A stretch of DNA of 64,000 nucleotides, from NCBI RefSeq assembly GCF_000003605.2, contig NW_003130861.1, positions 302,705 to 366,704 on the forward strand. The letters run 5' to 3'. Below are positions 22,191 to 53,149 of this stretch, piece after piece. Position 1 is the stretch's first letter. Every line of letters begins with the position of its first letter. This stretch comes from Saccoglossus kowalevskii (taxonomy: Eukaryota; Hemichordata; Enteropneusta; Harrimaniidae). The position numbers and the translations under genes are program-made. Under the pieces are notes generated by a model. That model saw only the letters and a program-made list of their open reading frames with translations. It ran no database searches and had not been told where the DNA came from.

Positions 22191-22199
22191 GAAGTCAGA

Positions 22200-26080: not shown

Positions 26081-27015
26081 CTAACCTGGCGTGTAGACTG
26101 CAACTTCACACAATACTAACACAGCAGTAGTTTCCATAGAAACTGTAACCTCATTCCCTCGTAAAGGTTCTGGATTTCTACAGTCCAGCAAGATTACTTC
26201 GGAACTTGCTGTATCCGCATCTACCTGGCTGCCACATTGGTCACCAGCGGGGTTCACTGTCACTATAGCGCCCTCTATGTTGGATGCTAAAACAAAAAAG
26301 TCATGATTTATTATAAATTTGTGTTTTGAATAATAAAGTGCTAATACTAGAGGTATTTCAAATACTATTGGATATATATTCCAACTTCGTGAATATGGGT
26401 ATATACAAGTTTTATTGTATTCTAAAGAAAAATATATTAATAAGAAACACAGCTTTGTTCATAATTTCTCTGTCGCATTGTTAAGGGTGATCCGGAATTG
26501 GAAAACGTATTTTTACTCAAATGTAGATTGTGAAATTCACCCATCTCTTATTCAACATGTCAAATGTTTTGCATGTGTTTTTTATAACCATTGCGCAAAT
26601 GTCTGAACTACCCACCTATAATGCAGTTAGATTCAAGCCCAATAAGAGTTTGAAAACTAAAGTGAAAATAAAACAGTTCATATGAGGTTCATATGATCAA
26701 ATTTTGTTACACTGACTTTCGAAAATGTGTTATCAGCGATTTGGAATTAAATGAATTTTGGTGGCATTGACTTACCACAGCAATCTAGTCGATTGGTGAT
26801 CGTCACGTGATATATATCAAGAGAAACACCTAAGTGTACCGTCCACCACGGAGAAGGCTCAGAAACACTCGAAAAACAACTTCCTGTAGAGTAGTTACCG
26901 TTCTTATTGCCATCAACAGCGTTCGACGCATCGCCTTTCCCGTTTACCTCCGATGATGAGGTTACAGTTTTGCCAACGGCGTAATTGATAAACGTCTCTG
27001 GGTCCAACGATGGGT
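26081..27015 (-). CDS. gene A exons 14-15: F-type lectin (fucolectin) domain and stop
   Basis: Exon 14 (26776-27015) encodes INYAVGKTVTSSSEVN, SNAVDGNKNGNYSTGSCFSS, PWWTVHLG and VTITNRLDCCGKSMPP. Exon 15 (26081-26286) encodes GDQCGSQVD, LLDCRNPEPLRGNEVTVSME and LCEVAVYTPG before TAG. NRxDCC, PWW.V.LG and the final LCEV.VY are F-type lectin (eel fucolectin/tachylectin-4) hallmarks. The fucose triad H(26)R.D....(R/K) is degenerate: the R is kept, but the His position is Ser and the last position is Ser with a Lys one residue earlier, so fucose binding is doubtful. Confidence 0.88.
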
Positions 27016-30000
27016 CTGCGGGAAGGAATCACAAGTAATTTAGAACCGCAGTTGTGTAAAGTATATGACAAATAGATTAAATCTACTATTTCGCATCATC
27101 AGTTTCTCACATTATCATCAATTCCAATTACACAAAAAGAAAATGTTGGAAAATACCATTAAATTATTTTTATCGGGCAGGGAAAAGTATAAACTATGAA
27201 TGCAGGACACTAACTCAAGTTGAACGCATTACAATAATAATTCTTTTCAAATTTGAAAATGTTACTTGAGCATTCAGACATTATTCTTGATTGTTGGTTA
27301 TATATGACGCTCTAATGGTTTGACACCTCAATTGGAATTTGTGTAATCTGCTCTATTTTGAAGACAGCTTTTTTGCAAAGAGTGACATACTTGTATTTCA
27401 AACTCTTTTATTATTATTTCAGGATAACCAAAACTTGTATTTGTGAGTGGAACTTGGGCGTAAAACTGCTGGTTGTGAAAAAGATAAAGGGGGTGGTCGT
27501 CGCGTCGCGTCCTGTTCGATATAGGACTCATAGTGACGTATACAACGAGTGTAAAATACATTGTTTGTTTGAACATGAACTTTGAACACGACGACCACCA
27601 CCCTTTAACTGATACATTTCAAGAGAGCAGTCAGCTGAATCGAATTATTCATGTTTGTACATTGTAATCTGCGAATTAATTTAAATATTGGACCTGAAAC
27701 AGACATGTTTACGCAGACAGTCTGCCTTACCCAATTTTAGTGCAGTATATTCAAGCAAATTGTCACTTGATGATTGTGTGTTCTGCCAAACTTCAGGTGG
27801 TATGTTGTACCATGTCTCTCTATCGTCGTCACTGAATATAATCGACCTGCCATCTCCTCCAACGCCATAGTACGCATCAGTGTCGCTATCATATGCAAGT
27901 ATGTTTGTTATTTTAGGACTTTTACCTGAAAAATAAACACACATAAACTTCAACGCCCAAAGGTTGTGTCATAATACGACGTTGCATACTTAATCGTTTA
28001 TGTATGAAACAGTCACTAACGACACAGACTGAAAAACACGACTATAACACCAGTCCTCTGTACATTAGCGCAAAATACATATCAGTATAGCAGTTTATTT
28101 ATTTACCAGCCCATAAAGTATCATTGGTCTCCGATCCCAGCCTAGACTCGCTGCAATCGCCCCCATCCCTATAAACAACAGAATATTAGTATTGCCTATT
28201 GAATATAACGTGGAAGATAAACAGTTAATAGGGGGCAAGGGGACAGCTGGTACAGGTTACAGGAAATAGAAAAGGCATTTTACGTTTTTACAAAAAATAA
28301 AATGAAAGTTCCATGTACAGTGAAAAAAATAGTTTTTTACACTTCACAGATTCCTAATTACATTTGATATTTTTATATTCTAACCAGTAACTTATTCAAA
28401 CCAGTAACTTATAAACATTACATGTCCCCAACCACAACAAAGTCACTACCATCTGGTTCATCAGCATTATTACTCATTCATCTGGGCAATGTAGACTCTT
28501 CACAGTTTACCCAAATATTCACATGCAAATGCAGTAAACCAATTAGTTCAGCACACATTTTCACACCATGTTGCCTTGCAACATTCAGTTAAATATTGAA
28601 AAGACTATTGAAATGGAACACATAATGATAACTGCATTTTGTTAAGCTACCGGCAGCCGTGCTGGATTTAAGAAAACCTGTGCACAATTTGTCGTACTTC
28701 CAGTGGTAGTGATGTGATGTTTTTTGTGAAAGCATTACTAAAAATTGTTCTATGAATGTTACAAAGAAAAATAATTAATTTTATTCCCGAAATGATATAA
28801 AATGCTTCTTCTTCATAATCATTCATTTTATTAGTCTGCAATGTAACATGCATATAAATGTATATTACAGTTTTAAAATGTGTGGTAATTGGTTGTGAAG
28901 TTCGGCGACAATGTTCATGTTAAGGGAAATGCTGTATTTATCATACATGGGATGGAGAACTAAGCAATGTGAAATTGATCACTTTTCAGACGATTCTCAA
29001 AGAAGTATTTTTGAAAAAAATATAGTACAATAAGTACTTATTATTAGTGATATAAATACAGATTATGTTGCTGATGAAGAAAAAACACATTTAATTTTAT
29101 CACTTTCTGTTTTTCATTAAAAAAATGTCCGTGTGACTAATCCAAACTCTAAAAGTTGTACCAGTTCACTTTAGGGTATGGGACATTTTAGACCATTTGA
29201 TTTAGCAAAGGGCTGGAGAAAAAAAAAAACGGTGAAAGAATAAATGAACGATAACAAACGAAATCCAAACTATTTTGGCTTGGAGCCCTGATTAATATTG
29301 TTAAAATAGTCACATGTGCTGTAGGATAAGAAGAGATAGGAGCGAGTCCAGTCAACCAGAATAACAGCCCTGAGACAAATCCAACATTGGCTTCTCAAAT
29401 AACCCTCCTATAGTCTGTGTCTCGATGAACGTACTACAAGAACAAAATTTAGATAAGATTTATAACAACCCAGAACTTACCAGGCTACCAGCGTGTCACA
29501 TATCATAAGATCACCTTTATGTTTTCTCACAAGTATCCCTCTCTCATAGGTATCTATATATAGCATAAATAATTGAGTTGAAAGTTACAATGATTATATT
29601 TTCGTGCTTAAACATCGATATAGCAACGCCCTTTCACCTGGAAAGGGTGGATATGATAACAATTATGAAGTATTGAGACTAATATATCAAGTTTCCGTGG
29701 ACTCGCCAATTTGTTACACACTCACACAATTAGCAAAAATGACAAACAATGGAATGGTCGCGGGAAAAGCAACCGGTATTCTTTGCATGCGCCCTCATCG
29801 GAAGTGGAATCCAAAACACATTTCGGCCTTAAAAACTCGTAATTTGTTTAAAATATTTTGACATACCAAGTTTTGTTGATATAGCAATTTGTCATGTTGT
29901 AGTTGCCGTGATACAGCGAAAAATCGCATAGGTATGCACTCGAACTGGGTAGTCGGGTAGAAGGCTCGTCCCATTTTTCAGAACGTTCTATGGCAACACT

Positions 30001-33000
30001 GATGTGGATATTCATTGTTAACATGCATATTCTATTTATTTGCACCAAACTTCGCAAAACCTTCATACGATAAGAATGATCTAGCTGTTATACGATATTA
30101 TTTGCGATCATTACCGGAAATGACGTTGAAAAGCTCAAGGCAGTATTGATTTTTTTTTTTAATTACAAGCTTCAATACGCTTTGAGGTGTTAATGATTCT
30201 CGTATTACGTGTTAGTTACGAGTAACTCTTCAATATTATATTGTCACGTCAGTCCATTATTTATGAGTTTGTACAAGTTAAATATTGTATACAACAAATT
30301 TACCCGTTAACGTAGAAGTTTGTCTTTCAATATCGTTGGAGGGTACGGTCTTTTCATCTGTAAAGCAAAAATATGTGACATAATTATAATTATGTGATTA
30401 TATTATAATTGGAAAATTAACATAAAAAGTCAACGACATTAATATAAGTGTATACCTTCAATTTCGCATATATATCCGCGGTCTTTACTACATTTTTTGT
30501 CATTCATGTTGTAACTAGGCGACAACAATTCGACGCAGTTCTCATTGTCCAAGTAATTGTTAGGTTCATGCGGTAACCACATGCTGTATCGGAGGTAACT
30601 ACCGTTGACCCACTTAAATATTCCTTCTGTGTCCCGATCAGTCAAGCCGATGAACAAGTTGGTGAGTGCCCCTGTTGTGTTCAGTAGATTTTGGACAAAC
30701 TCCCATTCGTTTGCGTCTTCTACTGTAAGAAGATGACCGCCCTCTGCGGCGCAATCAGCGCTTGCTTGATCAAAGTTGTAATCTTCATCATCAGTGATGT
30801 AATAGCACGACGTTTTGAAACGATGATGCCCGTCTTTGCATTCTGGAATTAAAAACAGTATAAAAACTGTTAATAAACGGAAAGTATTTTAGGTTGTATA
30901 CACGGTCATGTATCTCAATAATCACATGCCTGAGGTTCGGTTCCATACAGCTTCAGTTTTTGCAGGCCTAAGTCATTTCATTACATCGAAATCGTGAGAT
31001 TCAGGCGATGGAACAGATGCGTTTTATGGCGATTATTCCAAGTTCAAAATTAGTGCCCGACTCGGAGAATGGGAACCATCTTTGGTCACGTTCTGTCACA
31101 GGGAGCCCAGGAACTATAATCAACTGTAACANNNNNNNNNNNNNNNNNNNNNNNNNNNNNNNNNNNNNNNNNNNNNNNNNNNNNNNNNNNNNNNNNNNNN
31201 NNNNNNNNNNNNNNNNNNNNNNNNNNNNNNNNNNNNNNNNNNNNNNNNNNNNNNNNNNNNNNNNNNNNNNNNNNNNNNNNNNNNNNNNNNNNNNNNNNNN
31301 NNNNNNNNNNNNNNNNNNNNNNNNNNNNNNNNNNNNNNNNNNNNNNNNNNNNNNNNNNNNNNNNNNNNNNNNNNNNNNNNNNNNNNNNNNNNNNNNNNNN
31401 NNNNNNNNNNNNNNNTGATTTATTCTGCAGATATCGGTAAAATGTAGGTAAGGCTTTGGCGAAATTCGAAGGAGCAACTAATATTCTTCAACCTGGTATT
31501 TTTTTAGATTTTTTTTTAGATTTTTTTCGTTTGTTTCTTCGAGTTTAAAAAATGTGAACTGGCTGGAGCCTTCATCCCTTGTCTATTTCTTACACTAGAT
31601 ACCAGCCGATACCCCCCCCCCCCCGCTCATAGAGACTGCGTATTACAGTTGATTATAGTTCCTGGGCTCCCTGTGGTTCTGTGCTTCGATATGTAAATTA
31701 CGATGTGGCAGTGGTGAAAGCAAGAATGAGTATAGCACAAGTAATAGCGCCAGAGTTTTGAGTGTGATGACATTGCATAACACAAAGTTACGTCATATTT
31801 GGACTAATTTGTCATATGGGGGCGTAGCGTAAGTCCTTCCAAATAAGTTGCGCCTCCTAGCGATGACCCGCTTCCGTGACGTCAACAGGATAGGTGTGCC
31901 GTGCAACCACCTACACATCATAGGTGAACTTCATATTCCACGTAATATGTTATTGTACATGTCTTAATTAATACCTTCACAGACATAACAAAATTGATTC
32001 TTAGTTACCTGGTATAACATAATCAAATACGATATATTGTGGGGATTGTGAATGATAACCTATCGAGTCACAGGAATCTTTGTAGACAAGTTCACATAGT
32101 CCGACAAATGTGTGCGTTCCGGCTGGCTGTTCCTGGTTATCGCCAATCCTAAAAGTAATCTCCAAATGTATGACAGTATCGAAAGTTACATCTCCCACCT
32201 GCAATTGTAAAGCAATATATTACCATTCAGATATTACCAGTAAGCTACTTCAGACTGCCAGTTTTGTAGTTAAGTAAAATCCCACCTGAGATTGAACATC
32301 AAAGAACAAGCGACCCATGCCTGAGGCAAGTACGTTACTGGCCGAGATTCAGACACAGTGAATTTTATACGGACGCACGACCCTGTCATGTACTCTACCA
32401 CCTGTTACTCGTATGTTGGTAAAATGCAATGAATTTACGGTTATCATGACTTGAATTTGAAAATGTCATCATCAGTGACCCATTGTAACTGTCGTATGGT
32501 ACAACAATTTAATAAAAAAACCTGAACCATGTTACCATAATATGCAATGCAGTGATTTATTTGGGCTGTAATATTTTTAATTACAAATCATCACAATAGG
32601 CACATCCGGGGTATTTGGCGGTTCAGTATTGGTGGTTGTCACAGATTTCATACAAAATTTAAACTCCTAGACGACAATGTACACATGTAAGCAGACGTAA
32701 TTTACTTATAGAAGAGATGACGTAAGAACTCCACTTTTGTCTTGTTGCATGAAAGTATAGGCTATAATAGAAAATTAGTAAAGACCAAGGTGACTACTAT
32801 TACGATATTATTCCGCTATTTCAAAACCAGCTGTTCGTCACTAAAATTCCACTCATCAACTAAAAAATATAGTAGTAACCGTGCACTAACCAACAATTTA
32901 CTTATATAACATAATATCTTGACAGACTTACTTTTATTCTAATTTGACTACCTTCTCCAGATGTTACAGTTGGTTCAGTTGGCATGGAGTTCTCATTCCA

Positions 33001-36000
33001 GTAACTGATTTCTGTGAAAGTAAGCCAGGGCGTGTACACCATATTGATTGTGACGTCATAACCATAAGCACGTGATAACGGTTGTTCATGATATACTAAA
33101 TATTTGAATCTGACATCGTCCCTGAAAATAAATCAGATTATTTTCGATTATTTTAGCGGTGGGTGTCAATTAATGTAATTAATGAGGGCGTCCTACGTAT
33201 ACGGAGACAAGCCTTGAGACAGTAGGGTCATTTTTTATCTATAATAACTGCCTTAAAGACAGTTTTTTGTTAGAAAAACATAATAACATGCATCGATTAT
33301 TCAGCTTTCTGGAAATGCGAATAGATCACACGCACCCTCTTTGATATGTGTCACCATGATTCATTAACAGCGCCTCAAAATGAAGTTTCGGTTGTCTGTC
33401 CTCTGCTATCTCCACAGCAACCGGTAATGTAGCAACAAATATTTGACTTCCTGCCAGATTTATACCTACACCAATCCATAGCTCGGTTTCATTGTTCAGA
33501 AACTCCATATCTTCCACTCTAAATGATATGTCCAAACTCAACTTGTTTGTGTCGTCTATGACGTCACCAGCGGTGATCGATATATATTCATCGAAACTAA
33601 CAACGGCGTAATCATGTCGTGTGTTGTTGCATGTTGATTCATATGCGATCGCGTCAGTCAGGTCCACGGTACACGTGTTAGCATGCGTTCCCAATTCGCC
33701 TGATACAGGACATGGCACGTTGCTACCCAAGTGATCGACCGTAACATTCATCACTGAGAACGCAGAAATTTCATCGTCCCCGCAGCCGTTCCCAATTTCA
33801 ATTTGCCAGGGTTTCAGTGATATTTTGGGAAACGCCATAACTAATGTCGTTGTCGCCGATTCACCGATCTGAAGAGGGGCAACGCCATCAACGGTGGGAC
33901 CAACATGCGAAAATTCGAAGAACGGTGTGGCTGCAAATGCAGATTTACATATGAAGTCCATGTAGAAAATATTCGGAATCGCCATTATTCTCAGCTGAAT
34001 GAGCAATTTGTATTGGTACCCTGACCACGGTCCGACTATGAAAGATAATATGAAAACGTGAAATAATCACGGCGAATCCACACGTTATTATGCAAAATAT
34101 CCGAATTTCTAAAATGAGTCTTCTAAAAAAATCTATCTCAGTTGTAGTCATGGTAACTATTGTTCTTACCTTTGTTCCCATTACAGTCTGTACAATCTGT
34201 ACCATACACACAGAAATTACTGTCAGAGTCCTCGCTTCCGTCATCGCATTCGCCATCCAGAGTGTAATCGCAGGAATCGTCAATATCGGAACAACTACCA
34301 TGAGAGACTAAAACAGTTTGACTCGGTCAATCAAGTGAATGTACATTTTGTATAATTGTGTATATCATGGCGAAATGTAGTTGATTTCAAGACGATCTAG
34401 TTACTTAAAGTTATATAAAAAAAAAGGTTTACCAGACGTTGAAGTGAGCAAAGTTCCGTAGAATCGAAATGTATGAGGGTCAGAAACTCTCAATATTGTT
34501 AAATGACCGTCTCCCAGTTGGACAATCTGTAATAAACCAGTGTAATATGTCAATATTTGTTTTCCATGCCGATGATCATTGCTGTGCGATCTGAAGTTAT
34601 AACGTATAAGGGGAACTACTTACCGAGGTACACTCAGGGTTGCAGGAATATTGTATGTCTTCAATCTATAAACAAAACAAAAATAACACTTCAGCATTTT
34701 GCTCGCAATTATGAAATTAGTTGTGTGTTTCAAATCTCAATATAGAAGGTACTCAGACTAATTGCGCAAATCTCCGCCACGCCATGCCATATTTGCAATG
34801 AATATTTCTGACGATAACAAAAAATCTGAATATTTCTGTCTCAATTGAAACTAGGTCCAGATCTTTCTAATCAATTGATCTTTCGCTCGAGTCAACCCGT
34901 CACCAATCATTTTATTGGTTATCTGGCAACCTGGTAGAAATCTTTCTAATAATACCATAATGAATGTAGCCAAATATTGGTCGCACCAAAATCTTCCTTC
35001 ATTTTTTCATAGTATGGCAAAAGCGAATAATCTATCCAACAATAGCCGTCTCCTTGACAACCCTAGATCTTGCCAACATTAAATAAATTGGTCTGTGTTC
35101 CTGCTGCGACCCCTTTTAAAAGTCTTAAATGATCGACAGCAATTCTAATTATCCCGCTGACAGACAGACATACAAACTAACGCTTTCTCAATAACTAACA
35201 TTTTACAATCAATCATACGAATATTTAACAGCGATAGGCCACCCACTATCTCGCTCACTCACTTGAAGTCTATATGCATCTTCAAAGAATCGAATATCCA
35301 TCAAATTCAGCTGATTTGTTATCGTAATGTTCAAATCAAACTCGAAGGCGATCTGTTCACCTGCTTCGTAAGGTCCATTTTCTCCAACCACAGTGACTAT
35401 CCCGTCTGCATCATAAGCTGGTAATTGAAAATAGATTTTATGTTTCATTACAGAATGACAGGATATGTCAACGATTATTTTTGAATTAGATAAATCATCT
35501 CAACTATTTTCAATTTCAAATAACTATTTTAACTGACTTACTAAATCACATAGCATAAATGCCGATACAAAGAAAATAATTTACAAATAAAATATTTATT
35601 TCATTCGTTAATATCAGCATTCGACATGGTAAAGTCAAATTGACAACTGTTGCTACGACTGGTTGGACAAACGTGAGAACGACATCAAGATGTATCCCTA
35701 ATTAAAAACTCGGATACATGTATGTTTCAATAATGTTGGTCATTAAAACAATCACTAACCGATAACGGCATTTGGCAATACCATTTAATGTACGTTAATG
35801 TAACGGTAAACTTAGTTCTGATAGTTCTATCTAGAAGTGCAAAATTAGAATACTGTTATATTCCGGCATTATTGTTTTATTTACATGTTCAAACATTATA
35901 ACTATATATTTAACCGCAGAATAGTACATGACTCAATAGCAGAAATGTATTGGGCAATTTGAGACAATTTATAATGAATATTAAATTCCTAATCCCAGTT

Positions 36001-39830: not shown

Positions 39831-41113
39831 CCGGACGATTCGGCCCCTTACGTTTCGGCTCCGGACGTTTCGGCCTAAGTAGAGTTCGATGGTAAGATGA
39901 TCTTAGCCACGGAGTGAAACTATTCTAAATGAAAGGGAATATGTTTTGCAATCAACGATTTTTTTACGTTTGCTTCTTCTACTATTCGTGTAGTTGCATG
40001 TAATAGCATTCTTGTCTTTCTGCGAATGTGTGTTCGTTTACTCACGTGTCACCTGGCACCTTTAATATTAGCTGTACAGTAGATCTGCATTTCTCGTTTG
40101 TAGAATAGCTTAAGCAGTTAACACTATATGCTTAAGCAACTATATATTAATATTTCTGTAAACAACTCTATGCCGACATCACGTAATAGACTATGTATTA
40201 AATATTTCTGTAAACAACTCTATGCCGACATCATAGAGTATGTATTAAATATTTCTGTGAACAACTCTATGCCGACATCACGTAATAGACTATGTATTAA
40301 ATATTTCTGTGAACAACTCTATGCCGACATCATAGACTATGTATTAAATATTTCTGTGAACAACTCTATGCCGACATCATAGACTATGTATTAAATATTT
40401 CTGTGAACAACTCTATGCCGACATCATAGACTATGTATTAAATATTTCTGTAAACAACTCTATGCCGACATCACGTAATAGACTATGTATTAAATATTTC
40501 TGTAAACAACTCTATGCCGACATCACGTAATAGACTATGTATTAAATGTTTCTGTAAACAACTCTATGCCGACATCATAGAGTATGTATTAAATATTTCT
40601 GTAAACAACTCTATGCCGACATCACGTAATAGACTATGTATTAAATATTTCTGTAAACAACTCTATGCCGACATCACGTAATAGACTATGTATTAAATGT
40701 TTCTGTAAACAACTCTATGCCGACATCATAGACTATGTATTAAATGTTTCTGTAAACAACTCTATGCCGACATCACGTAATAGACTATGTATTAAATATT
40801 TCTGTGAACAAATATAAATCAACAAATAACTTATACCGTCACTTATTGTTATGAAATAATGGATTTCAACACTTATAACGATAGGTGTGAATTTCACGAG
40901 AAAGAACAATAAAAGTGTTTTTTATGTTACCACCTCTGTTTGCTAGATGAGATTGGGAGATATTCCTGTATGGCTTCACTAATGTCGGCAACATTACTTG
41001 TAACGCTAATTTCACATACTCACAGAGTACTGGAGATCGTTTATTTTATAGAAGAGAGCCACGGGCCGAAACGTCCGCCCTGGCCGAAACATCCGTAGCC
41101 GAAACGTCCGTCC
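39831..41113. mobile_element. non-autonomous element with GGCCGAAACGTCCG-type arms and an internal minisatellite
   Basis: Left arm (39831-39876) has three TTTCGGC/ATTCGGC words including CCGGACGTTTCGGCC; right arm (41061-41113) has three GGCCGAAACGTCCG-like words in inverted orientation. Between them is the 52/47-bp minisatellite at 40138-40810. No coding frame. Inverted arms around an internal tandem repeat recall non-autonomous elements known in molluscs and other marine animals; family not assigned. Confidence 0.6.
40138..40810. repeat. minisatellite, 13 copies of a 52/47-bp unit
   Basis: The unit contains TATGTATTAAATATTTCTGT, then AAACAACTCTATGCCGACAT. Thirteen GCCGACA cores are present plus a last partial unit. 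Units differ by presence or absence of CGTAA at the joint (52 or 47 bp) and by G or A in TGTRAACAAC. The long/short order is mixed, which suggests repeated unequal exchange. Confidence 0.92.
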
Positions 41114-41675: not shown

Positions 41676-41746
41676 TTAACAGGTCGAGCATTGCCAAATA
41701 GCGGTCTTCGTACCATTCATAATCACAGCACTGTTGTCATGGTTAG
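41676..41746 (-). CDS. gene B candidate last exon
   Basis: After a good acceptor (TTTTAATTTCAG) the phase-1 frame reads ANHDNSAVIMNGTKTAIWQC and two more residues, then TAA at 41676. Length and phase fit exon 13 exactly. No similarity to known domains; it stands where gene A has its F-type lectin domain. Confidence 0.4.
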
Positions 41747-44700
41747 CTGAAATTAAAACACGCATCCGCATAAGAAACCAATTGGAAAGTCGGGAGTAAG
41801 TTCAATTCAGTCACACCGAGCGATAATATTCAACTCAATGAATTAATCACGTGACATATATAAGAATCGATTTACTCGGCTTTTGTCAATAAAGCCAACG
41901 TCTAATAATGAAATGTACGTATTTAATTATTAACAAAGGGAGACTTTTAAACGAACTATGGTTCATTGTGCACGTTTGTCGTTTATTTACCGCTATATCA
42001 TGTTGCTAATATGACAGCCCCGTTATATTTATTAAATTGTTGTTTTCCGTAAAAGGTCTCCTGGCTACGTCATAAACACGCCTCTCTACAATCAACCAAA
42101 ATTTTTGTTTGCGACATGTATGAGATTGACTTTAATCACGTGTTTGTAAAATGTATTTAAGCTATTGCAAAGGTGAATTACCCTGTGTCTACATTAGCAA
42201 CTGTCGATTCGAGGACACGTATTTTATTTCTCATACACCTTAGAAAGGTGAATATTTGTGTGTTTTGTGCACACATATAGGCGAGAATCTATGTGGCGCT
42301 CCAATTTCCTAACTCCTTGCTGTTATTTTAGCAATATCTCATTGTGGTCGACTAAAGGGCGCAAGATTATGGTTATTTTTTACCGTGCGCAGAATTTAAA
42401 TCGCCATGCCACACGACTGTTAATGACAACCCATAGTGTGTGTTATGTTTTGCATATTATGAATATTGAAAGAGAAATGCCACATAGATTCTACAAGCCA
42501 CTTGTTATCTGGTTACCTACACCAGTGTGGATGTGCGTAATATCTTGTCAAAACATTATAGCTAAGTGTTACAAACCTGTTGGCACGACTGAGTAGACGA
42601 CCATATCTACGTCAGCGCTTGCAGTATCCCACAATTCTTTGCGAATGCTGTACCAGGAGTTTCCATCGTCATTGCTGATCAAGTATGCATTTGTGTTGTG
42701 TGATATCCCATAATATTCACTACTATTCCACCCAATAACGTTCACCGCACCAGGAGTTATTGCTAGAATAAACGAGTTTAGAATTACACTGTAAACTGTA
42801 CATGTGCTGTATACGTTAACTAATGAAGATCGAACAACATCTGAAGTGAACATAATTTCCAACAGTCTCGAAAAGTTAATTTTAGTTACAAACACTATTA
42901 TGAAAGTAAAATTAAATGAACTATCCCCTTCTCCGGTTCAAAGCCATGTAATTGGATAGCATACAACTTGGTATGTAGAAAATGACATGTTGACTACAAC
43001 ACAGGGTCGTTTATTTTTACGAGTTAACTTACCTGACATTCTACCATCCACGTTGAGCCTTGAACAAGCACTTCCTCCCTGTCTAATGATAATGTAGATC
43101 AAATAAGTTATTTATTTATTATTAAAACGTGAGCTAATATCTACGTACACAATAAGTGTAATTCCAGTCTTGAGATTGAGTGTTTATGTTTATTATAGTT
43201 CTGCTTGTAGTTGATTTCTTTTTTCTCATTGGAATATGTTCACGGAGTTTATAGTACTTCATGTAGACCCGGATTTATGGGTTTTACAGAAAACGAATCT
43301 TCGTACGCCTTTTTATAGTCAAGCATTCACGGCTTCATTTGGTTGGAATTCACAAGTATTTTTTTATACATTAAATGCTGTGAACGAACCATATACTCAA
43401 TATACTTTACAAAACGAGCACTAGGTCGGAGAGTGTGTATATGTCCATACTAAATGTATACTTATAATGTATGTATGTATATATAGATCATTGGAATGTT
43501 AGCTTTATGGTCACAGTGTTTTCCCCCCTCCCCGCTCGTGTGACACACGTCCAAGTCCGCTTCTGATCGTTACAACAAGTAGTAATCACCAATACCTATA
43601 ATTTTCACAAACGTAATATTGGATGTAAGTACCTGGGTACAATGTCGTCGCATGTTATAGACCACTGTCCATTCACATCATCCAAAAACTGTCTTGCATT
43701 GTAGTCTGAAATATGAACGTATTATTTCATTTCGTGTTTGTAAAATGATCGTGTTTTTCGAGGAAAGCCAGCGGCAACCTCTCTAACAGCGAGAAACTGT
43801 TAATATAAATCGAATTTCTGTCGTAACTAATCTAGCGGAAGGAGGATTGCTGCAAGATTGACAACATTTGTTTAAAGGTCATTAACTCCATATTTGAACA
43901 TGAACATCAAACCAGTACATGCAATGTTCCATTCGGTGGACGGTTTTACAAACGGACGTGGAGGGCGGGTAACTATAGCAAGAAGTGAATATCGGCATCA
44001 ATTAACAGAACTACAAGAGTACGAAACATTGATGAACAGACGAGTAGCAAGACGATGCACGTTGTGGTCCGCAGTTTATTCTTACCTTCAACTGGATCTA
44101 CTGCATTTAGCGTATATGATACTGTGGGCGCTTGCTCACCTAAAAAAGGAAAGACAATGTAGGTTACCTATAACATTAATGTACTCATGCAATTATATAA
44201 ATGATTGTAAAATATATGCCGGGAAAATAATAAATGTTAAAAAAGCGGCACGAATGTACTTGTTAACTCCGCATATAAAAATTTACGTCATCTTTTCGAC
44301 CAACAATTATAGATACCGTCATAAAATGTACCTCTAGTTTCGCATATGTAATCGACTGCATCGAGACATGAGCGCGTGCCCCATTTGTCGCTATAGCTAC
44401 CGCCGATAACAGCACAGTGATACCCGTCTGATGGCTCTCCTGCGGCCCAGTTACTGTAAGATAGGTACGTCTCATCGTGCCATTGGAATATATCCTCAGT
44501 TATTAAGTCGTTGCTTCCGATCCAAAATTCTTTATTCGGGTCAGTGACGTAATTGTTGAATATAAAGCTGTTCTCTGCAGCGTCGTTGATAATGACTAGA
44601 CTTCCGCCCTCAGTGGAGCATTGGGAGACGGCCTGTTGCCATGCAACGCCTGTGCCTGACTGAGAATAACAGGACGTTCCATGTTGTAGTTGGCTTGATG

Positions 44701-47700
44701 TACAATCTTAAGAAATCAGAGAGGGTAGAGTCAATTTATTTCTTATCGTGACAAATGATTTTTTTGGAATATTTGAAACTGCGCTTGAATTATACGATTC
44801 AATATTGTAGCACATTTAGTGTAGGCTCATTTGTCATGAACTAAACATTCGTGTATTAATTTTGGTAAAAGCAAAATCTCACCCGATTCTGTTAGAATAT
44901 TATATAGACATAAGAAAAAATAGGGTGTCATTTTTTTCTCTCTTTCTGACACCCTGAAATCCAAGATGGCTTCCACACTACAAAAAGGGGGTAAATTGGA
45001 CATTATGGGCGAGCTAAATCTGATTCTAATATGTTTTTCACCATCTATTTCTTGTAAAAGAGCAGGTAGAGATTCCCACATGGATGTCAACTTCCCTATA
45101 ACTACTAATCTTATATTTTGTGAAGTTTCAGCCAGACCTACCATCTAAAATTAAATATGGCGTCCTGAAAATCAATGTTTAAGGTAGTTTGCTACCATTT
45201 CTAGCGGTCAAAATCTCATCACAATATTTTATTTCCAAATTGATATATAATTATTCATTATGGCACTAATGATCAACTTTTTTTTAGTTCAGAGAAGAAA
45301 TGTTTTCAAAGATAAACTACATAAAATATAAAAAAAATTCCATTTTAAAAATATCTCCATAGGAAACCATTGTAAAGCATTATTTGATAAAAAAATATTT
45401 TGAATCTAGAAATTGTTTTAATATTTCATGACAATAATTCGTATACCCAAGGTTATTATATATGATTTTTTCATCCTATGTCACCATGCAAATCTTGAGA
45501 TATGATGAAATATTATTCCCATAGGACCCAATGGTAAAAAGTTTAATTTTCATGAATTTTGTCCTAATGTTGTCGTGAAAGTAATACAGTGACCATAAAT
45601 TTTCTTTATGAATTCATAAGTACTGTATGAAATATTATGGAAATCTGACATTAAATTCAAATGGTGGCAAACTACCTTAAATGCAGTTGCTGGACGCAGT
45701 TGTTCCATATTAGATATATAAGGTTGTTTTATATATACATTTCATTGTATTTGCAGGAAAAAAGTGCCCACAGGAAACACAATGTAGCTTAGAATCCATA
45801 ATTAACCAACATGGCAGAATTTTCATCTAAAAAGAGGTCAAAAAACTGTGGATTTTAAACTTTGCTTCATTTCTCAAGTGAGCAGCAGACAAACAGATTA
45901 TACAAACTATGTGCTTCATCCTTCTTTGTCCTCAGTAGAAAAACTAATTAATACAACTGATGTTCGATGCTCATACGGAGGAAACAGAGTTCTCTGCATT
46001 AAAGGATCGCTTAAGTGGTTTGTCTGTTGATAATCTGCTACAGAAAAGTGTTTCGTACCACAAGACTTGTTACAAAGATCTCACAAATAAAACATACATT
46101 AAACGAGCAAAAATCAGATATGAGAAAGGACAATCAACAGGAAATGCAAGTGCCGTAAAACAAAAGAAAAGAGGACGACCATCAAAATCTACACCTACAT
46201 GTACTTCCAAGTCACAACCTACATGTACCAGGNNNNNNNNNNNNNNNNNNNNNNNNNNNNNNNNNNNNNNNNNNNNNNNNNNNNNNNNNNNNNNNNNNNN
46301 NNNNNNNNNNNNNNNNNNNNNNNNNNNNNNNNNNNNNNNNNNNNNNNNNNNNNNNNNNNNNNNNNNNNNNNNNNNNNNNNNNNNNNNNNNNNNNNNNNNN
46401 NNNNNNNNNNNNNNNNNNNNNNNNNNNNNNNNNNNNNNNNNNNNNNNNNNNNNNNNNNNNNNNNNNNNNNNNNNNNNNNNNNNNNNNNNNNNNNNNNNNN
46501 NNNNNNNNNNNNNNNNNNNNNNNNNNNNNNNNNNGGATGTGTGTTATTTGCCAAGAAGACAAATCATACAAATTGCATGATGTCTCAACTGAAAACATGG
46601 GAGCTCAGCTCAAGGCAATTGGTCATCAGACAGCAAATGAACAGTTGAAAGTCAGAATGAGCAATGTTGTTGCATCATCTGATCTTTTAACAGCAGTTGC
46701 AGAGGACATGAAGTGCTTAAGCCATGCAAAGAGAGACATAGAAAAGGCTAACAGGCAACTATCAAAACATCCTATCCAGTTTGCACAGTTAGTGTCCCAT
46801 CTTGAGATGCTCGACATGGTAGAAACGGAAATTAACAACACAACTCGTGAATCTGTTTTGAATATGAATGACATTGAAAAATCATATGTGCTTTTGCTAG
46901 ATGCAAACAGGTTTTCTTTGCCTGATCATCCAAGATACAAACCATACCTAAAGCAACTAATTTTGGACAATATCCCTGATGTGCATTTCACCAGACCTCC
47001 AGACAAAACCAAACCAGAACAAGTACTTTCTACAAAGTCCAAGGAAACCCTGTTAGCCAGTGCTCTTGATAATGACCCGAATAACCTAAGAGAAGATGTG
47101 AAGGTCCTTATGAAAGCAGCTAAAATTCTAAGGAGACACATTGCAACTGCAACTCCGTGGAAATTTCAAGGAACATTAGATAATTATGAACCACCTGCTT
47201 TGCTCCAACTATTCTGCAAACATGCTATCCAAGGCTTGCATGAAGTTAAAACTACCATCAGTGCAGAGTCCATGAACCAAAGTGTATCTGTGCTGGCACA
47301 GCATTTCGTGAGTTCATACAAAAGTGAACAGCAGGTTACTTCAAGGCATTCATGTCTTGTGAAGATCAAATCTTGGAATCATTATCAATGCTAGGAAATG
47401 ACAATAATCTTTCCCCTGATGCATGCTCCCAGCTAGAACGCTTTGTTTGTGTGCTGTATCGATCAAAAATCCACACAAAAGTAAATGAGCTTCGCTGGTT
47501 CCTCTACTCAAATCGTGCAGCCGAAGGAGAAAACCTTCCACCAACTTCAGGTTCACTGGAATTGCATATTCGTCGCGCACACTACATAGCCATGATTTGG
47601 AAGAAAGCTAATAAAAATCACCCAAGCCTCCCAGCACCTACTGCATTTGGTTGGACACTTGACGCAGGTTCAAGAAACTTCTCTCCTGTTCGATGTATGA

Positions 47701-50700
47701 ATCCACCAGCTCCTCAGGCAGTACTGCACCTAATAAAGTGCGGATGCAAACGTGGATGTGAAGGAAGGTGTAGTTGTCGCAAAAACAATATCCCCTGTAC
47801 AGAAGTATGTGGATGTTGGGCATTCACTTGCAACAACAAAACAAGTCAACCAGGGATAAATGATGAGTGTGAAGACGATTGATGTATATTTCTAAATTCA
47901 CACTTATGCTGTTGTATATGTGACTTTGTGACATTTTGTGATTAATACAATAACTGAACAATAACTAACGTTGTTTTAAAATATAATTTTGTAGATTTGT
48001 TTTTTGACTTTATCATGCAATACATTAGTTTAATCAAACAGCTATTTTGTTTGTACATTTATTTCCAATATCATTGTATAGATTACGGTGTTCAATTCAA
48101 TAGAATTCAGAATGGAAGCCATCTTGACCATAGGCATGTAAATCATAATTTTAGCCTAAATTTGAATATTGCATTGCTTTCCTTGTGTCCAAAAACCTAT
48201 ATCTAGACACTTTGTTTGAGTTATAACATGTGTACGAGTCAATATATTCAATTATTGCTAAACGGCGGCCATTTTGGACGCCATCTTGGATTTCAGACCC
48301 TAATTTTTATTAAAGCTTATGATATCTTCTTTTAAAATCAAGTAACTTTTTGCTTTTACCAAAAAAAATACACGAAATTACAAATGATCCTAGACTAATT
48401 GTGGAAATTGCCTTTGTGATTTTTTTCTCGCATCAAAAATCATTTTCGTTTTTGGTTGCAAATACATCCACAATTACCAATATTAGAATTATTATTGTGT
48501 ATCAGTTTTCGTCATATTTTCGTCTTAAATTGAAACAATGGTCATGTTTCTGATTGTTCAATACAACAGGTTCTATCACATCGTAGATTTATATTTTAAA
48601 ATACCTGTGAATTTCTTGTGAATTGATGTTGTTTGTGTACTTCATGTTGTTTGTGAATCAAAATCGACGACTTATGTCATTGTTTCGTTAGACAAACACC
48701 GTGCCCTGTTACCGGCATTTTTGTGTCATGTATATTGTCAACATTATTGTTAAAATACCTGGAACCTGGTACGTTACTTGTATAAAGCCACCACCCATCG
48801 ACAGCGTATTCGTTGACGTCCGTGTACTCTTATATAATATATCAACAACACCGATAAAAATATAGACACCGCCATTCTGTAGTTCATCCGGGTCGATATT
48901 AAAGGTAAGTTGAAGTTCCACTTGTTCGATGAAGGTAACACTGTCAAACTAAATGAAAAAACAAATATTTAATTTTAAACATTTTGGTTACGTAAAAATA
49001 CATCGATGCCCATTACATAAAAGTAGTTGGTTTCAACCAGTGTTGTTTCTGTTACACTGAGACAACAGTCAAATCACTACATTCGCCACACAGCTCGCGA
49101 TCAGAGTTCCAGGAAACAGTAAACTGTACACAGGTTGTACGTGTTGATTAGGATCCATATCGAACAAGTCGACGTAGCGCGACGACTGTGGCGTTTGAAG
49201 CCCTCCTTTAAGATGCTAGTCTCAAGTCTCTAATGACTTAAATGTGATTAGAAACAGTGTATCACCTTAATGTGAGTTATATATCCATTCTGACTAATAA
49301 GTGATGGCCCCGTCTCGATTGTTTCGTTATTCCATGTACAATCGCTGTATTTAACGTACGGGGTGCTGATGACGCTGATTGTGACGTCATGTGCGTAGGC
49401 ATCTGAGTCGGTTTGATGGTGTAATATAATCTGAGCACTGACGTTGTCTCTGAGAAAGAAAAGAACTTTCAAAATAAAGCGTATACTGATATTTAAATGG
49501 GGTTATTTGAGTGTCACGTTTCAACAATCACTACTAATTCAACACGTTATATACTATGAGAAAAATGAGATACTTTCAACCCTGTTTTACATACCAGATA
49601 CGTCTCTATATCGCACTTACCACACATAATATACATTTCCCTTTCCCATTTCACCTATATTATAGACCATATATTTAGAAAATATCTCACTGATAAGAGT
49701 TGACTGGGCCCATACTTATTTTCAATCATTGAGCATACTTTCGTTTATAACACCTCAATTACAGACCACATAAATCCGTATTGTACACTGTATTCACTAG
49801 TTACAATATAAAAGCACTCTTTTAAAACCAGATATACGTACATATGTATCTTTCACTTATCATCTACATCACACACCAATTCAAATTAATTACTCACCCT
49901 CTGTAATATACACCATTTTCATTTATAACACTTGTATTACAGATGAGATTGGGTTGTCTATCCTCGTTCAACAAAGCATAAAATGGTACTTGGGAAGTCA
50001 GTATGAGTGAATTTTCTATGAAACCACCAACTTGAAACCAATACTTGGAACCGTTCTCCATTGAAGGATGGTCTTCCAGACGGATTTTCACCTCGAAAAC
50101 GAGCGTGTTCTCAATGTCGGAGACAGCGCCCGCACTGATAAACATGTATTCTGTGAAATTAATGAGGGCGCGATTTATCTCCATCCCTGGTCCCGTCGAG
50201 TGATAAGTTATGAAATCAGCAACGTTACTGCACACGGTGACGTCATTTATCAAATTATCAGGTGGACAGGGTACGTTTGCTCCGATGGAAATCAAGTTAA
50301 TGTCTGCGATGGTGAGTGTTACTCTTCCGTCGATAGAGGGAGACAGCATTTCGATGTACCATGGCTGTAGAGACGCCATCGGTAAACTCACACTGAAATC
50401 AAAGACTGCTCTATTGCCAATGGCGACAAAGGAAGAGTTTGGTGCGCCGCTTACGGTAACTACCGGTGGAGAGAAATCGAAGTGAATCATTTGAATTTTA
50501 ACAGGATCCGAGTCGTACTGCGCAAGCGTAGACAGAGGTGACATTATGGTTGGTCTATATGATATTTTGATTGACATAGTCAGTTCCTGTCCCGGTGCTA
50601 CGCTGTCTGTAAAGAACAACAACAATACAATGTGTGAATAGTGATATACCGAAATAATATTTTTTTTTTGTCACTTGCAACAATGACAATCAATGTCGGG

Positions 50701-53149
50701 ACATGCAGGCATTTTTGTTTTGAAAATAATAAAACTCTTTTGAACTTACTTCTTACACCACAGTCCGTACAATCATCTCCATAATCACAGGAAGTCGAAA
50801 CGGCGTTTGGACCTCCATCATCACAGTTACCGTCGTTACTGAAGGCTCCACAGTTTTCATTACAAATGTCATTCTCTGTTTGAAAACACCAACAACAGCA
50901 ATATCAACAACGACGATTATGCGTTAGGTATACAATGGATAGCGATAACGATAGGGGTCGTGTTTCATATATAAATATTTCTTCACCATGATAATGTTAT
51001 TGTTGTACGCCAGCTCCACGTGGGTGTTAGAATAATAATAATGAATGTTTTACCTAATATTACTGTAGATAATTCGCCGTATATTCTACAGTCAGTGGCT
51101 TGATCTGCTAAATTTATTTTATTTTCCCACAGACCCGACGTAATTTCGGTTATCTGCAATCATATGAATACAGTTTTGTTTGTAAGTGTAAATGAACAAG
51201 CAAACTATTTCAGAAAAGTGTACTGTATTTCCGGGACAAACAGTGTAAGAATGATAGGTACAGTAGCTACTTGACAAAATTTTTGCTGTGGTGTTGTTCA
51301 AACTCAAAAGCTAACACGAATACTGCCCGCTATTGGCCTGAATAGCAATATCGCATTTCCTTACCGTAGATGGCGCCGTCGTATCCAGCCAAACATCGCC
51401 TATCAGCTCTGCATACGTCCATGACAACAGAGTGATCTACAATCAAATACGTATTTGTTTATTTGAATATTGATAAAAATATTGGATTATAATTTATCGT
51501 AAACTAAAATATTGACAAAATAATATTTGTTCGATGAAAATGCATTAGTTTGTGTTTATTGATTGTTGTAACATGTACCACAACAATCAGCGTACATGCG
51601 TAATAAAGTTGTTTTGACATCGAACAAACAGTGTGGTGCAAAACATGTCAGAAATAAAACAAAATGAAACTTCATAATAATAATAATGGTAAAAATATTA
51701 CGTTAAAATATGACACAGAACAAGGTATTTAAACTGTTCGATAAACTTGATCTTTACCTCTAGCGATTTCATATAATTGGCAGCTTAATGGTAAATCAAT
51801 CCCGCTAATAATAGAATTATCATTTCAAATGCGATTGCAAGTAAATTGCGTAAACATTTTGTGATTTTGCTATTAAACATGGTTATGAGAAAGTGTTAGA
51901 AAATCTGTAGCCGATAATATCAAATTACGATTGTTGACAATGCTTAAAGATGGGTAGCTGCTATTCTAATAACCATGCCAACATTGAAACTCCAATTGAA
52001 CTCATTGATGATAATTTGTGAAGTACTCGTCCCAGAAACACAAAACAATCAGATTTCCGACAATTATTGCGATACATGATGAAACTTCAGAGCCAGAAAG
52101 ATAATAGAACCTTTATGTACCTCGAAGCATACCTCGAGCACAGTGATGCATAATTTGAATCTTACTAACGAGATAATTTAGTTCAATTTATATCATAATG
52201 GTATCATAGGTACTAAAACTACGTTTGTTCACTAAATGTTCTAACGCTGTGACACATTTCAACTTCTATTGCCTTGTACTAATGTATCAACACCCATGAT
52301 TATATGGTAATTTCAATTGTATTAATACAATAACTTATAATGTTTTGTTTAGGCCAGCCGTCAATGCGTGGTACCTAGCGAACAAAGTATGCAATGTACA
52401 TCATTCGAAGAGTATGTGACGATTGCGATATATAATTTCTCAATATTAAATAACAAATGTAAATTTGTAAACAAATGATATTATTTTAATTCATCAGAGT
52501 GGAATGCATATTGCATTTTATGATGTGATTACATCGTCTATCATAAATTCGTTATTTGATTTGAAAAGACAAAGGAATATAGATGAATACGCGGAAAGTA
52601 CACTGTCCCCAGACGCAAATTGGATGTTGGTATTATGTAGTCAAATTTAATTATTAGCAATTTCATTTTTACCCCGACATACATTGAACATAATTCAAAC
52701 TGAGGTCATATGGCGATGTGACAATGACAATGATTAAGATAATCTTTGATAATCTTTGCAGTAGTGTATATATCACCCACCTAAACAGAGTTGCGACATG
52801 ATTATTGCAAATTAAATTGACTGCTGTGGGATTTTCTTGTCCATTTATCCCATAATGCAATGCAACGATAACGTTATTGTAATCCTATATAGCTGACAAA
52901 ACATGAGTCAGATCTCACAAACATGCGACAAAACAATGCACAGAAAATAAACAGGAGAATTGCCGAGAATCGTTAATTGTTAAATTACCTTGATCTTGAA
53001 GCTATTTGTAGTCTCGAAAAACGACAAAGCCGTCGTCTTCACTGACTGGGTAAAATTAACATTGATGTCAAACTGAAATACAATAGCGTCACTGGCCTGG
53101 TACCCCACGTCGGCTGTTGGTGGATCTAAGCTAGCGAAACCCGTCAAAT
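41676..53149 (-). CDS. gene B: tandem paralog of gene A, secreted C-type lectin protein (5' exon not found)
   Basis: Thirteen exons on the minus strand: 52989-53149, 51365-51436, 51054-51153, 50750-50875, 49898-50606, 49266-49449, 48759-48948, 44332-44706, 44086-44139, 43641-43705, 43033-43078, 42577-42762 and a probable last exon 41676-41746. Phases match gene A exon by exon and several lengths are identical (190, 54). The first exon found begins in phase 1, so a signal-peptide exon like that of gene A is expected above 53149, but none convinced me. The product is about 780 residues plus the missing start. It lacks the F-type lectin domain. The intron between 44706 and 48759 holds a 3.6-kb mobile element. 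Confidence 0.8.
42577..42762 (-). CDS. gene B exon 13: Asp-box-like module
   Basis: 186 nt, phase 1 to 1, encoding TPGAVNVIGWNSSEYYGISH, LISNDDGNSWYSIRKELWDT and VVYSVVPTG. SNDDGNSW fits the Asp-box S-x-D-x-G-x-x-W. If the donor (GTTTGT) is skipped, a TAA follows two codons later at 42569, which would also end the gene. Confidence 0.75.
43033..43705 (-). CDS. gene B exons 11-12
   Basis: Exon 11 starts at 43705 (YNARQFLDDVNGQWSITCDD). The donor matching gene A in position (exon end 43633, 73 nt) would put exon 12 out of frame; an inner GTACCC donor (exon end 43641, 65 nt) keeps frame and gives DDI-GGSACSRL. Exon 12 is 43033-43078 (GGSACSRLNVDGRMS), donor GTAAGT. Either the inner donor is used or an indel has arisen. 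Confidence 0.55.
44086..44139 (-). CDS. gene B exon 10: linker
   Basis: 54 nt, phase 1 to 1, encoding EQAPTVSYTLNAVDPVE between acceptor CTTTTTTAG and donor GTAAGA. Same length and phase as gene A exon 10. Confidence 0.7.
44332..44706 (-). CDS. gene B exon 9: C-type lectin domain with lost calcium ligands
   Basis: 375 nt, phase 1 to 1. Contains CTSSQLQHGTSCYSQSG, AVSQCSTEGGSLVIINDAAE, EFWIGSNDLITEDIFQWHDE and WAAGEPSDGYHCAVIGGSYS, ending CLDAVDYICE. The WIG core and six cysteines are kept, so the fold should form. The sugar/calcium ligands are changed: EPN is EPS and the WND position reads SDKW, so calcium-dependent sugar binding is probably lost, unlike gene A. Confidence 0.9.
45179..45680. 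mobile_element. TTAA-flanked MITE nested in the 3.6-kb element
   Basis: GGTAGTTTGCTACCATTT (45183-45200) and its reverse complement AAATGGTGGCAAACTACC (45659-45676, one mismatch) are each bordered by TTAA (45179-45182 and 45677-45680). TTAA target duplication suggests a piggyBac- or Kolobok-mobilised MITE. The interior has no ORF. Confidence 0.8.
45813..47883 (+). pseudogene. multi-copy-type protein with Cys/His motifs and C-terminal CXC-like domain, interrupted
   Basis: Plus-strand frames: MAEFSSKKRSKN (45813) and a LCFISQ piece; VSYHKTCYKDLTN and a basic KKRGRPSKS stretch (45960-46230); a 302-base assembly gap; CVICQEDKSYKLHDVS to 47394; then, in another frame, 47352-47882 with ELRWFLYSNRAAEG, TAFGWTLDAGSRN and CGCKRGCEGRCSCRKNN. 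The paired C..C / YH..C words and the C-terminal CxCxxxCxxxCxC cluster are typical of a large family of intronless proteins common in cnidarians and other invertebrates and suspected to be transposon-borne. A frame change near 47352-47394 and earlier ones break it. Function unknown; DNA binding by the CXC cluster is inference. Confidence 0.7.
48759..49449 (-). CDS. gene B exons 7-8
   Basis: 49266-49449 encodes DNVSAQIILHHQ, YAHDVTISVISTPYVKYSD and ITHIK. 48759-48948 (190 nt) encodes VTFIEQVELQLTFNIDPDEL and YIFIGVVDILYKS, ending TYQVPG. Both are the direct counterparts of gene A exons 7 and 8. Confidence 0.8.
49898..50606 (-). CDS. gene B exon 6: large beta-rich extracellular module
   Basis: 709 nt, phase 1 to 2. 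Contains SVAPGQELTMSIKISYRP, FVAIGNRAVFDFSVSLP, LQPWYIEMLSP, GANVPCPPDN, YMFISAGAVSDIENTLVF and ALLNEDRQPNLIC. It aligns throughout with gene A exon 33336-34035, including the NVPCP and EDRQP words, proving common descent. Confidence 0.85.
50750..50875 (-). CDS. gene B exon 5: DGNCDDGG cysteine module
   Basis: 126 nt encoding NDICNENCGAFSNDGNCDDG, then STSCDYGDDCTDCGVR, donor GTAAGT. Same disulfide pattern as gene A exon 34170-34307. Confidence 0.85.
51054..53149 (-). CDS. gene B exons 2-4: N-terminal beta-rich module
   Basis: 52989-53149 encodes GYQASDAIVFQFDINVNFTQ and ends FKIK before GTAATT. 51365-51436 (72 nt) encodes LLSWTYAELIGDVWLDTTAP. 51054-51153 (100 nt) encodes EITSGLWENKINLADQATD and IYGELSTVIL. 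Introns are GT..AG and phases are 1-0, 0-0, 0-1 as in gene A. Confidence 0.75.
51437..52988 (-). other. gene B intron between its second and third exons
   Basis: A 1.55-kb intron with donor GTAATT and acceptor TTTGATTGTAG. No coding or repeat structure recognised. Confidence 0.55.

What the first reader, a model, noticed from the sequence alone, without database searches (positions are those of the whole stretch)
26081..53149. Two tandem lectin genes with the same exon-phase plan
Genes A and B match exon for exon over about 12 exons, with identical lengths for several (190, 54 nt; 73 nt with the outer donor) and identical phases. The domain set (beta-rich modules, DGxCDDG module, C-type lectin, Asp-box-like module, optional F-type lectin) is a combination I do not recognise as a named family.
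Basis: partly seen in the sequence, partly recalled or inferred. Interest (0 to 1): 0.75.

Follow-up and report, generated by a model that had tools for sequence, protein, structure and literature searches.

The report
Acorn-worm mosaic lectin gene pair
Two neighbouring genes of an acorn worm share one exon plan and belong to a small gene family in that genome, in which an undescribed protein core is combined with different sugar-binding domains, so the worm seems to have built a set of recognition proteins by swapping exons.

Summary
Confirmed, and larger than first reported. The window is Saccoglossus kowalevskii. Genes A (35417-25744) and B (53149-41676), both minus strand, match over 13 exon pairs; incoming phases agree in 13 of 13, and three pairs have equal lengths (190, 54, 73 nt). 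Proteins are 28% identical over 766 columns, E 2e-81. NCBI models contain my splicing verbatim, but one fuses the 3' half of B to A, against B's own stop exon and a candidate signal-peptide exon of A. New: both genes share a Cys-rich terminal exon, and genome searches found four more loci with parts of the same core in the same phases (C and D in tandem, E, F). C-type lectin, F-type lectin and Cys-rich domains sit on symmetric 1-1 exons and vary between genes. A's C-type lectin keeps the calcium site and B's does not; A's F-type lectin lost two of three fucose contacts, D's keeps the motif. No Pfam family, and no relative outside this genome, was found for the core, with limited sensitivity. 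A role in glycan recognition is inferred.

The parts
38356..38440 (-). Candidate gene A start: signal-peptide exon (28 codons plus 1 nt, donor GTAAGT), phase fits A1
   Evidence: 5.5% of 200 Markov-simulated copies of the region give a hydrophobic score this high. Gene D has a similar candidate in the same phase. Not in the NCBI model.
35263..35417 (-). A1: N-terminal module M1, part 1 (phase in 1, out 0)
   Evidence: in P0002
34624..34665 (-). A2 (0-0)
   Evidence: similarity to B2 not above shuffles
34433..34526 (-). A3 (0-1)
34170..34307 (-). A4: DGxCDDG Cys module, symmetric 1-1 exon
   Evidence: relatives in bacteria
33336..34035 (-). A5: large core module M2 (1-2)
32932..33121 (-). A6: core module M3 part 1 (2-0)
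32009..32198 (-). A7: core module M3 part 2, 190 nt (0-1)
30456..30842 (-). A8: C-type lectin domain, 1-1 exon, calcium-site residues present
   Evidence: Pfam Lectin_C 6.1e-23; alignment to C-type mannose receptor 2 residues 351-475 (5ao5)
30304..30357 (-). A9: 54-nt linker exon (1-1)
   Evidence: no sequence similarity to B9
29481..29553 (-). A10: 73 nt (1-2)
   Evidence: placed with the help of NCBI model P0002
28107..28168 (-). A10b (2-1)
   Evidence: placed with the help of P0002; similarity to B10b not above shuffles
27731..27925 (-). A11: Asp-box-like module (1-1)
26776..27015 (-). A12: F-type lectin, first half (1-1)
   Evidence: Pfam F5_F8_type_C_2 7.4e-10; A12-A13 to FBP32 6e-26
26086..26286 (-). 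A13: F-type lectin, second half (1-1)
25744..25817 (-). A14: terminal coding exon ending AIWQCSTCR, stop
   Evidence: 11 of 22 identical to the B tail
60787..60801 (-). First coding exon of NCBI model P0001 (MDLR); no signal peptide, doubtful
52989..53149 (-). B1 (1-0)
51365..51436 (-). B2 (0-0)
51054..51153 (-). B3 (0-1)
50750..50875 (-). B4: Cys module (1-1)
49898..50606 (-). B5: core module M2 (1-2)
49266..49449 (-). B6: M3 part 1 (2-0)
48759..48948 (-). B7: M3 part 2, 190 nt (0-1)
44332..44706 (-). B8: C-type lectin domain (1-1), calcium-site residues lost
   Evidence: Pfam 1.5e-19
44086..44139 (-). B9: 54 nt (1-1)
43633..43705 (-). B10: 73 nt (1-2)
43033..43082 (-). B10b (2-1)
42577..42762 (-). 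B11: Asp-box-like module (1-1)
41676..41746 (-). B13: terminal coding exon ending AIWQCSTC, stop (B's own end)
   Evidence: in P0001
44884..45003 (-). N-terminal 40 aa of the fused NCBI model P0002; probably spurious

Best explanation
Genes A and B are two old tandem paralogues in the acorn worm Saccoglossus kowalevskii. They belong to a family of at least six loci built on one undescribed core: N-terminal module M1 (seen in A-D) on exons of phases 1-0-0-1, modules M2-M3 (A-F) on exons of phases 1-2-0-1, a short exon pair (A-D, F), an Asp-box-like module (A-F) and a Cys-rich tail (A-C). Extra domains sit on symmetric phase 1-1 exons or exon pairs, so they can be gained or lost without breaking the frame: a Cys module and a C-type lectin (A, B), another Cys cassette (E, F), F-type lectin (one in A, two F-type-like exon pairs in D). 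Shown: the exon plan, the phases, the family and the domain differences. Inferred: the proteins are secreted glycan-recognition proteins; A binds mannose-type sugars through its calcium-dependent C-type domain, D binds fucose through its second F-type domain, and B and C, without an intact sugar site that I could see, act as structural partners or have another ligand. NCBI model P0002, which joins part of B to A, is most likely an annotation fusion.
For: 13 of 13 matching phases. Spliced A and B lie verbatim inside NCBI models P0002 and P0001. Paralogous stop exons A14/B13, 11 of 22 identical, 0 of 500 shuffles. Candidate signal-peptide exon of A and a candidate in gene D in the same phase. 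M2 exon searches give one set of 5 loci from B5 and from D5 (5 matches of 7 candidates each) and a sixth, weak one from E5. The exons placed in C, D, E and F follow the same phases (with the two mended borders told below). A8 has EPN, E and ND at the positions of C-type mannose receptor 2. D14-D15 has H-X26-R-X-D-X4-K. No Pfam family for M1-M3 of A and B at E 10 or better beyond a sub-cut-off row, none for the M2 of D and E.
Against: No transcript evidence could be read. P0002 is an NCBI model that contradicts two separate genes. The signal-peptide exon of A is only modestly better than chance (5.5% of simulations), the one of D has no control, and B has no convincing signal peptide: model P0001 starts with MDLR. 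Three of 13 exon pairs show no sequence similarity. AlphaFold models were unusable (mean pLDDT 30.8 and 36.8), so 'beta-rich module' is not shown. Profile comparison did not show M1, M2 and M3 to be repeats of one another. My first acceptor for E11 gave stops and was replaced; the F5 donor coded gives phase 1, and I moved it by one base, by eye, to a GT donor in phase 2. Exons 10 and 10b of E, M1 of E and F, and the tails of D, E and F were not found or not sought. The sixth locus F was reached at E 0.003 only, although its neighbouring exons match too. Whether F's upstream EGF-like and C-type lectin frames belong to the same gene is unproven.
Confidence: 0.72

Rival explanations
1. One gene: NCBI model P0002 is right and the C-type lectin/Asp-box part of B is spliced in frame onto A1, giving a fusion protein with two C-type lectin domains; the 5' half of B would be a separate gene or a dead exon set.
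For: P0002 is a public model and contains all 15 of my A exons. The join B11 (out phase 1) to A1 (in phase 1) keeps the frame.
Against: It skips B's own stop exon, which is paralogous to A's, and A's signal-peptide candidate. The frame of its N-terminal 40 aa matches no other frame in the window at E 1e-3; it was not compared with C-F. Model P0001 keeps B whole with its stop exon. Gene C also ends with its own tail exon next after the Asp-box exon.
Confidence: 0.12
2. A and B are separate genes but B is decaying: its C-type lectin lost the sugar site and it will become a pseudogene.
For: Calcium-site residues missing in B8; no good 5' end; a 4052-nt intron between B7 and B8 that holds opposite-strand reading frames.
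Against: The 13 exons placed in B are open and its 12 introns have GT..AG borders, although only 28% of aligned residues still match A; open frames over such a divergence are not expected without selection (inference).
Confidence: 0.1
3. The core is an ordinary member of a wider marine-invertebrate protein family that my searches missed because they need shared 5-residue words.
For: All three protein searches have limited sensitivity and two scored only the candidates sharing most words. A review says that F-type lectin domain occurrence and domain organisation are expanded in hemichordates and cephalochordates (PMC5712786, passages). Single-domain hits exist elsewhere. It is not known whether other hemichordate proteomes are in the database.
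Against: Among the proteins that passed the E-value limit, none outside S. kowalevskii covers more than 16% of the query (5834, 7998 and 7983 candidates scored).
Confidence: 0.35

Closest known systems
Drosophila furrowed and CG9095 (C-type plus F-type lectin mosaics)
   Same: One polypeptide with a C-type lectin domain and an F-type lectin domain; in CG9095 the C-type domain is thought unlikely to bind sugar, as argued here for B (PMC5712786, passages).
   Different: Those have complement control modules and a predicted transmembrane domain. P0001 and P0002 have no CCP hit, and the core M1-M3 plus Asp-box module has no counterpart in the passages that I saw.
F-type lectins (fucolectins; AAA 1k12, FBP32 3cqo)
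   Same: A12-A13 and D14-D15 match the domain.
   Different: A has S and N in place of His52 and Arg86 of AAA; the domain lies before the tail exon of a larger protein.
Mannose-receptor type C-type lectin domains (PLA2R, LY75, C-type mannose receptor 2)
   Same: Among the best PDB matches of A8 and B8; A8 keeps the calcium-site residues.
   Different: One C-type lectin domain per gene in A and B; no fibronectin-II or R-type domain hit.
Bacterial DGxCDDG Cys module (Myxococcota, Phycisphaerae, Flavobacteriales and others)
   Same: 45-65% identity to exon B4 in the 79 loci listed, out of 89 relatives among 337 pattern matches; also two copies in bacterial protein P0004.
   Different: In the worm it is a single 1-1 exon in A and B among lectin domains; a search of C and D with A and B gave no such hit. 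Its spread among animals was not searched.

Membership tests
C-type lectin domain | Pfam Lectin_C above gathering score | tested here: met
   A8 82 bits and B8 71.1 bits, cut-off 22.6
C-type lectin domain, sugar-binding subset (gene A) | EPN (or QPD), E and ND calcium-site residues (motif recalled; positions read from a PDB alignment) | tested here: met
   A8 EPNN, ENCVE and ND aligned to EPNN, EDCVT and ND of C-type mannose receptor 2 (5ao5)
C-type lectin domain, sugar-binding subset (gene B) | same residues in B8 | tested here: not met
   EPS and WGT
F-type lectin (gene A) | domain match | tested here: met
   FBP32 E 6e-26, AAA 4.8e-18; Pfam F5_F8_type_C_2 above cut-off
F-type lectin (gene A) | fucose motif H...R-X-D-X4-R/K (PMC5712786 gives HX24RXDX4 R or K; residues 52 and 79 of AAA have 26 between them) | tested here: not met
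   S and N in place of H52 and R86 (alignment; pattern search)
F-type lectin (gene D, C1729) | same motif in D14-D15 | tested here: met
   H-X26-R-X-D-X4-K; Pfam F5_F8_type_C_2 39.3 bits, cut-off 27.8
F-type lectin (gene D, first pair D12-D13) | domain match | tested here: inconclusive
   Pfam 20.8 bits, below the cut-off of 27.8
Asp-box (BNR) repeat | S-x-D-x-G-x-[ST]-W (recalled) | tested here: inconclusive
   B11 SNDDGNSW fits; A11 SDDDRETW has R for G; no Pfam BNR hit; one copy per gene
furrowed-type mosaic lectin | complement control modules | tested here: not met
   No CCP/Sushi hit in P0001 or P0002
furrowed-type mosaic lectin | transmembrane segment | not tested
   No program for this was run
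Mannose receptor family | many C-type lectin domains plus fibronectin-II and R-type domains (recalled) | tested here: not met
   One C-type lectin domain in each of A and B, no other such hit
Two separate tandem genes | separate start and stop for each gene | tested here: inconclusive
   Two paralogous stop exons found; start exon of A only a candidate, of B unresolved

The most novel reading that the evidence does not exclude
A hemichordate-specific scaffold of otherwise unknown domains (M1-M3 plus Asp-box module and Cys tail) that has been fitted, gene by gene, with different recognition heads through phase 1-1 exon cassettes: C-type lectin, F-type lectin, two kinds of Cys module and perhaps EGF repeats. 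This would be a small innate recognition repertoire made by exon shuffling on a new scaffold.
Probability: 0.35. Interest if true: 0.6.

Novelty: new variant of a known kind. Interest (0 to 1): 0.45.

Why it matters
Mosaic lectins are a main tool of innate recognition in animals without antibodies, and hemichordates are an early branch of the deuterostomes (both recalled). A core with no named domain and fixed intron phases, on which lectin and Cys domains come and go as in-frame cassettes, is a clear example of exon shuffling and a testable set of glycan-binding candidates. It also suggests that a public gene model (P0002) fuses two genes, which would mislead a survey of domain combinations.

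Tried and rejected
Structure: AlphaFold on P0001 (mean pLDDT 30.8) and on the exon-5 pair (36.8) was unusable, so no fold search was run. Internal repeats: profile comparison of M1, M2 and M3 gave at most 2.2% probability, with 5 reversed-profile controls reaching at most 1.0%, so I do not claim repeats of one fold. A DUF11-like fold suspected by eye has no Pfam support. Aligning single exons of A to P0001 failed, and a P0001/P0002 alignment paired the shared B part only. Signal peptide of B: two weak candidates, not accepted. ARAGORN and Rfam (gathering scores) found nothing in the window. Literature searches showed no title on these genes, but listed only 15 of 36, 2 of 2, 2 of 2, 12 of 35, 1 of 1 and 5 of 41 papers; LOC102803115 occurs in 0 papers. 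PMC5712786 was seen as passages only; other papers only as search listings with starts of abstracts.
Full report
Source. The spliced gene B protein is found with 100% identity and coverage in P0001, 'uncharacterized protein LOC102803115 [Saccoglossus kowalevskii]'; the lineage is Hemichordata, Enteropneusta. The window is G000:C2268:302705-366704 of a 572-Mb assembly.

Gene models. I set exon borders by hand at GT..AG sites and added A10 and A10b with the help of the public model P0002. Gene A runs 35417-25744 (15 exons placed, 930 aa from A1) and gene B 53149-41676 (13 exons, 782 aa from B1), both on the minus strand. My A is contained verbatim in P0002 (from residue 288) and my B in P0001 (from residue 6). 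A against B: 211 of 766 identical, E 2e-81 (before A10 and A10b were added).

Exon plan. Of 13 A/B exon pairs all 13 have the same incoming phase: 1,0,0,1,1,2,0,1,1,1,2,1,1. Equal lengths occur in 3 of 13 (190, 54, 73 nt). In 8 of 13 pairs none of 500 shuffles reaches the protein score, in 2 of 13 five do, and in 3 of 13 (A2, A9, A10b) similarity is not above chance.

Ends. A has a candidate signal-peptide exon at 38440-38356 in the right phase; 5.5% of 200 Markov-simulated copies of the region give an equal hydrophobic score, so it is a candidate only. Gene D has a candidate signal-peptide exon in the same phase, the better of two found in a looser scan without a control. For B the public model begins with MDLR at 60801-60787, without a signal peptide, and I found no better start.

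The fused public model. P0002 (1217 aa) starts with 40 aa from 45003-44884, then B8-B11, then A1-A14. It skips B's stop exon and A's candidate start. The join is in frame because both borders are phase 1. I think that it is an annotation fusion, but only transcripts can decide.

Domains. Above its cut-offs Pfam names only Lectin_C (A8 6.1e-23, B8 1.5e-19) and F5/8-type C (A12). NCBIfam gives only matches below cut-off, the best to a polycystin model in the C-type lectin part. A8 carries EPN, E and ND at the positions of C-type mannose receptor 2; B8 has EPS and WGT. A12-A13 is an F-type lectin by similarity to FBP32 and AAA, but His52 and Arg86 of AAA are S and N. The review PMC5712786 (passages) names this triad as the fucose contacts and cites furrowed and CG9095 as mosaics with C-type and F-type domains. 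B11 has an Asp-box-like SNDDGNSW; A11 deviates (motif recalled). Exon 4 is a Cys module also found in bacteria: 89 of 337 pattern matches in prokaryote genomes encode a relative, and 79 loci were listed. That collection holds prokaryotes only; the spread of the module in animals, and direction and age of the relation, were not studied.

Family. Searching the genome with exon B5 gave 5 matches of 7 candidates, with D5 the same 5 loci of 7 candidates, and with E5 those plus a weak sixth at E 0.003 (6 of 6 candidates). The loci are A and B; a tandem pair C and D on C1729; E on C3085; F on C3324. The 3333-aa open frame reported at E is mostly an N run next to the exon, not a long gene. C has M1, M2, M3, exons 9, 10, 10b and 11, and a tail YTAIINDCSDC. 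D has M1, M2, M3, 9, 10, 10b and 11 plus two F-type-like exon pairs: D12-D13 is below the Pfam cut-off, D14-D15 is above it and keeps H-X26-R-X-D-X4-K. A search of the C/D stretch with proteins A and B gave no hit in the Cys exon 4 or the C-type lectin part (E 0.1). E has M2, M3, a Cys cassette E8 and exon 11. F has M2, M3, a similar cassette F8 (0 of 1000 shuffles reach its score against E8), 10, 10b and 11. Phases follow the A/B plan in the exons placed, with two mends: my first acceptor for E11 gave stops and was replaced, and the donor coded for F5 is one base early (the next base gives GT and phase 2, read by eye). M2 identity: A/B 64 of 223, C/D 184 of 226, the other eight pairs of A-E 49 to 66 of 202 to 218. 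Upstream of F on the same strand lie EGF-like frames and a degenerate C-type lectin, recognised by eye; whether they belong to F is open. Tails of D, E and F were not found.

Elsewhere. Three protein searches gave, apart from P0001 and P0002, six proteins that match single domains over 9 to 16% of the query (P0003-P0008). Sensitivity is limited to proteins sharing 5-residue words, two searches scored only a capped set of candidates, and one search did not return P0002, a protein that it should have reached. Absence outside Saccoglossus is therefore suggestive and not shown.

Mechanism. The added domains of A, D, E and F that I placed sit on exons or exon pairs that begin and end in phase 1, so gain or loss keeps the frame (shown by the phases). 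The likely product is a secreted recognition protein in which the core presents a lectin head (inferred). A should bind mannose-type ligands with calcium; D should bind fucose; B and C probably do not bind sugar through these domains (inferred from residues).

Assessment. It is a new variant of a known kind, the mosaic lectin, on a core without a name. No experiment or transcript supports function yet.

Noticed in passing
40139-40811: Minisatellite of about 13.5 copies of a 52-bp unit (91% matches) between the stop of B and the candidate start of A.
   Followed up: no
10286-13537: A segment of about 1.57 kb is duplicated head to tail; matched frames are 53-100% identical, the longest 97% over 102 aa.
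   Followed up: no
13744-16715 and 19636-21259: Two stretches match in inverted orientation; possibly a mobile element or a long inverted repeat.
   Followed up: no
45948-47882, + strand, inside the B7-B8 intron: Opposite-strand open reading frames, the last ending in a Cys-rich stretch, interrupted by an N run. Two of the frames have no Pfam hit at E 0.01; the longest was not scanned. They may be a mobile element and may explain why public models broke gene B here.
   Followed up: partly
22178-22747, - strand; also 4726-5418 and 5976-6554, - strand: The frame at 22178-22747 has a weak reverse-transcriptase match (E 0.0086, below cut-off); the other two look like LINE remains to the eye, without a Pfam hit.
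   Followed up: partly
G000:C4110 (locus L085): The C-type lectin search lists nine C-type lectin frames on this 38-kb contig, in two sets of equal or nearly equal score on opposite strands, spaced about 8 kb: a tandem array.
   Followed up: no
L113-L114 (C3324:228196-233561, - strand): Gene F lies downstream of three EGF-like frames and a degenerate C-type lectin on the same strand; it may be a further domain combination of the family.
   Followed up: partly
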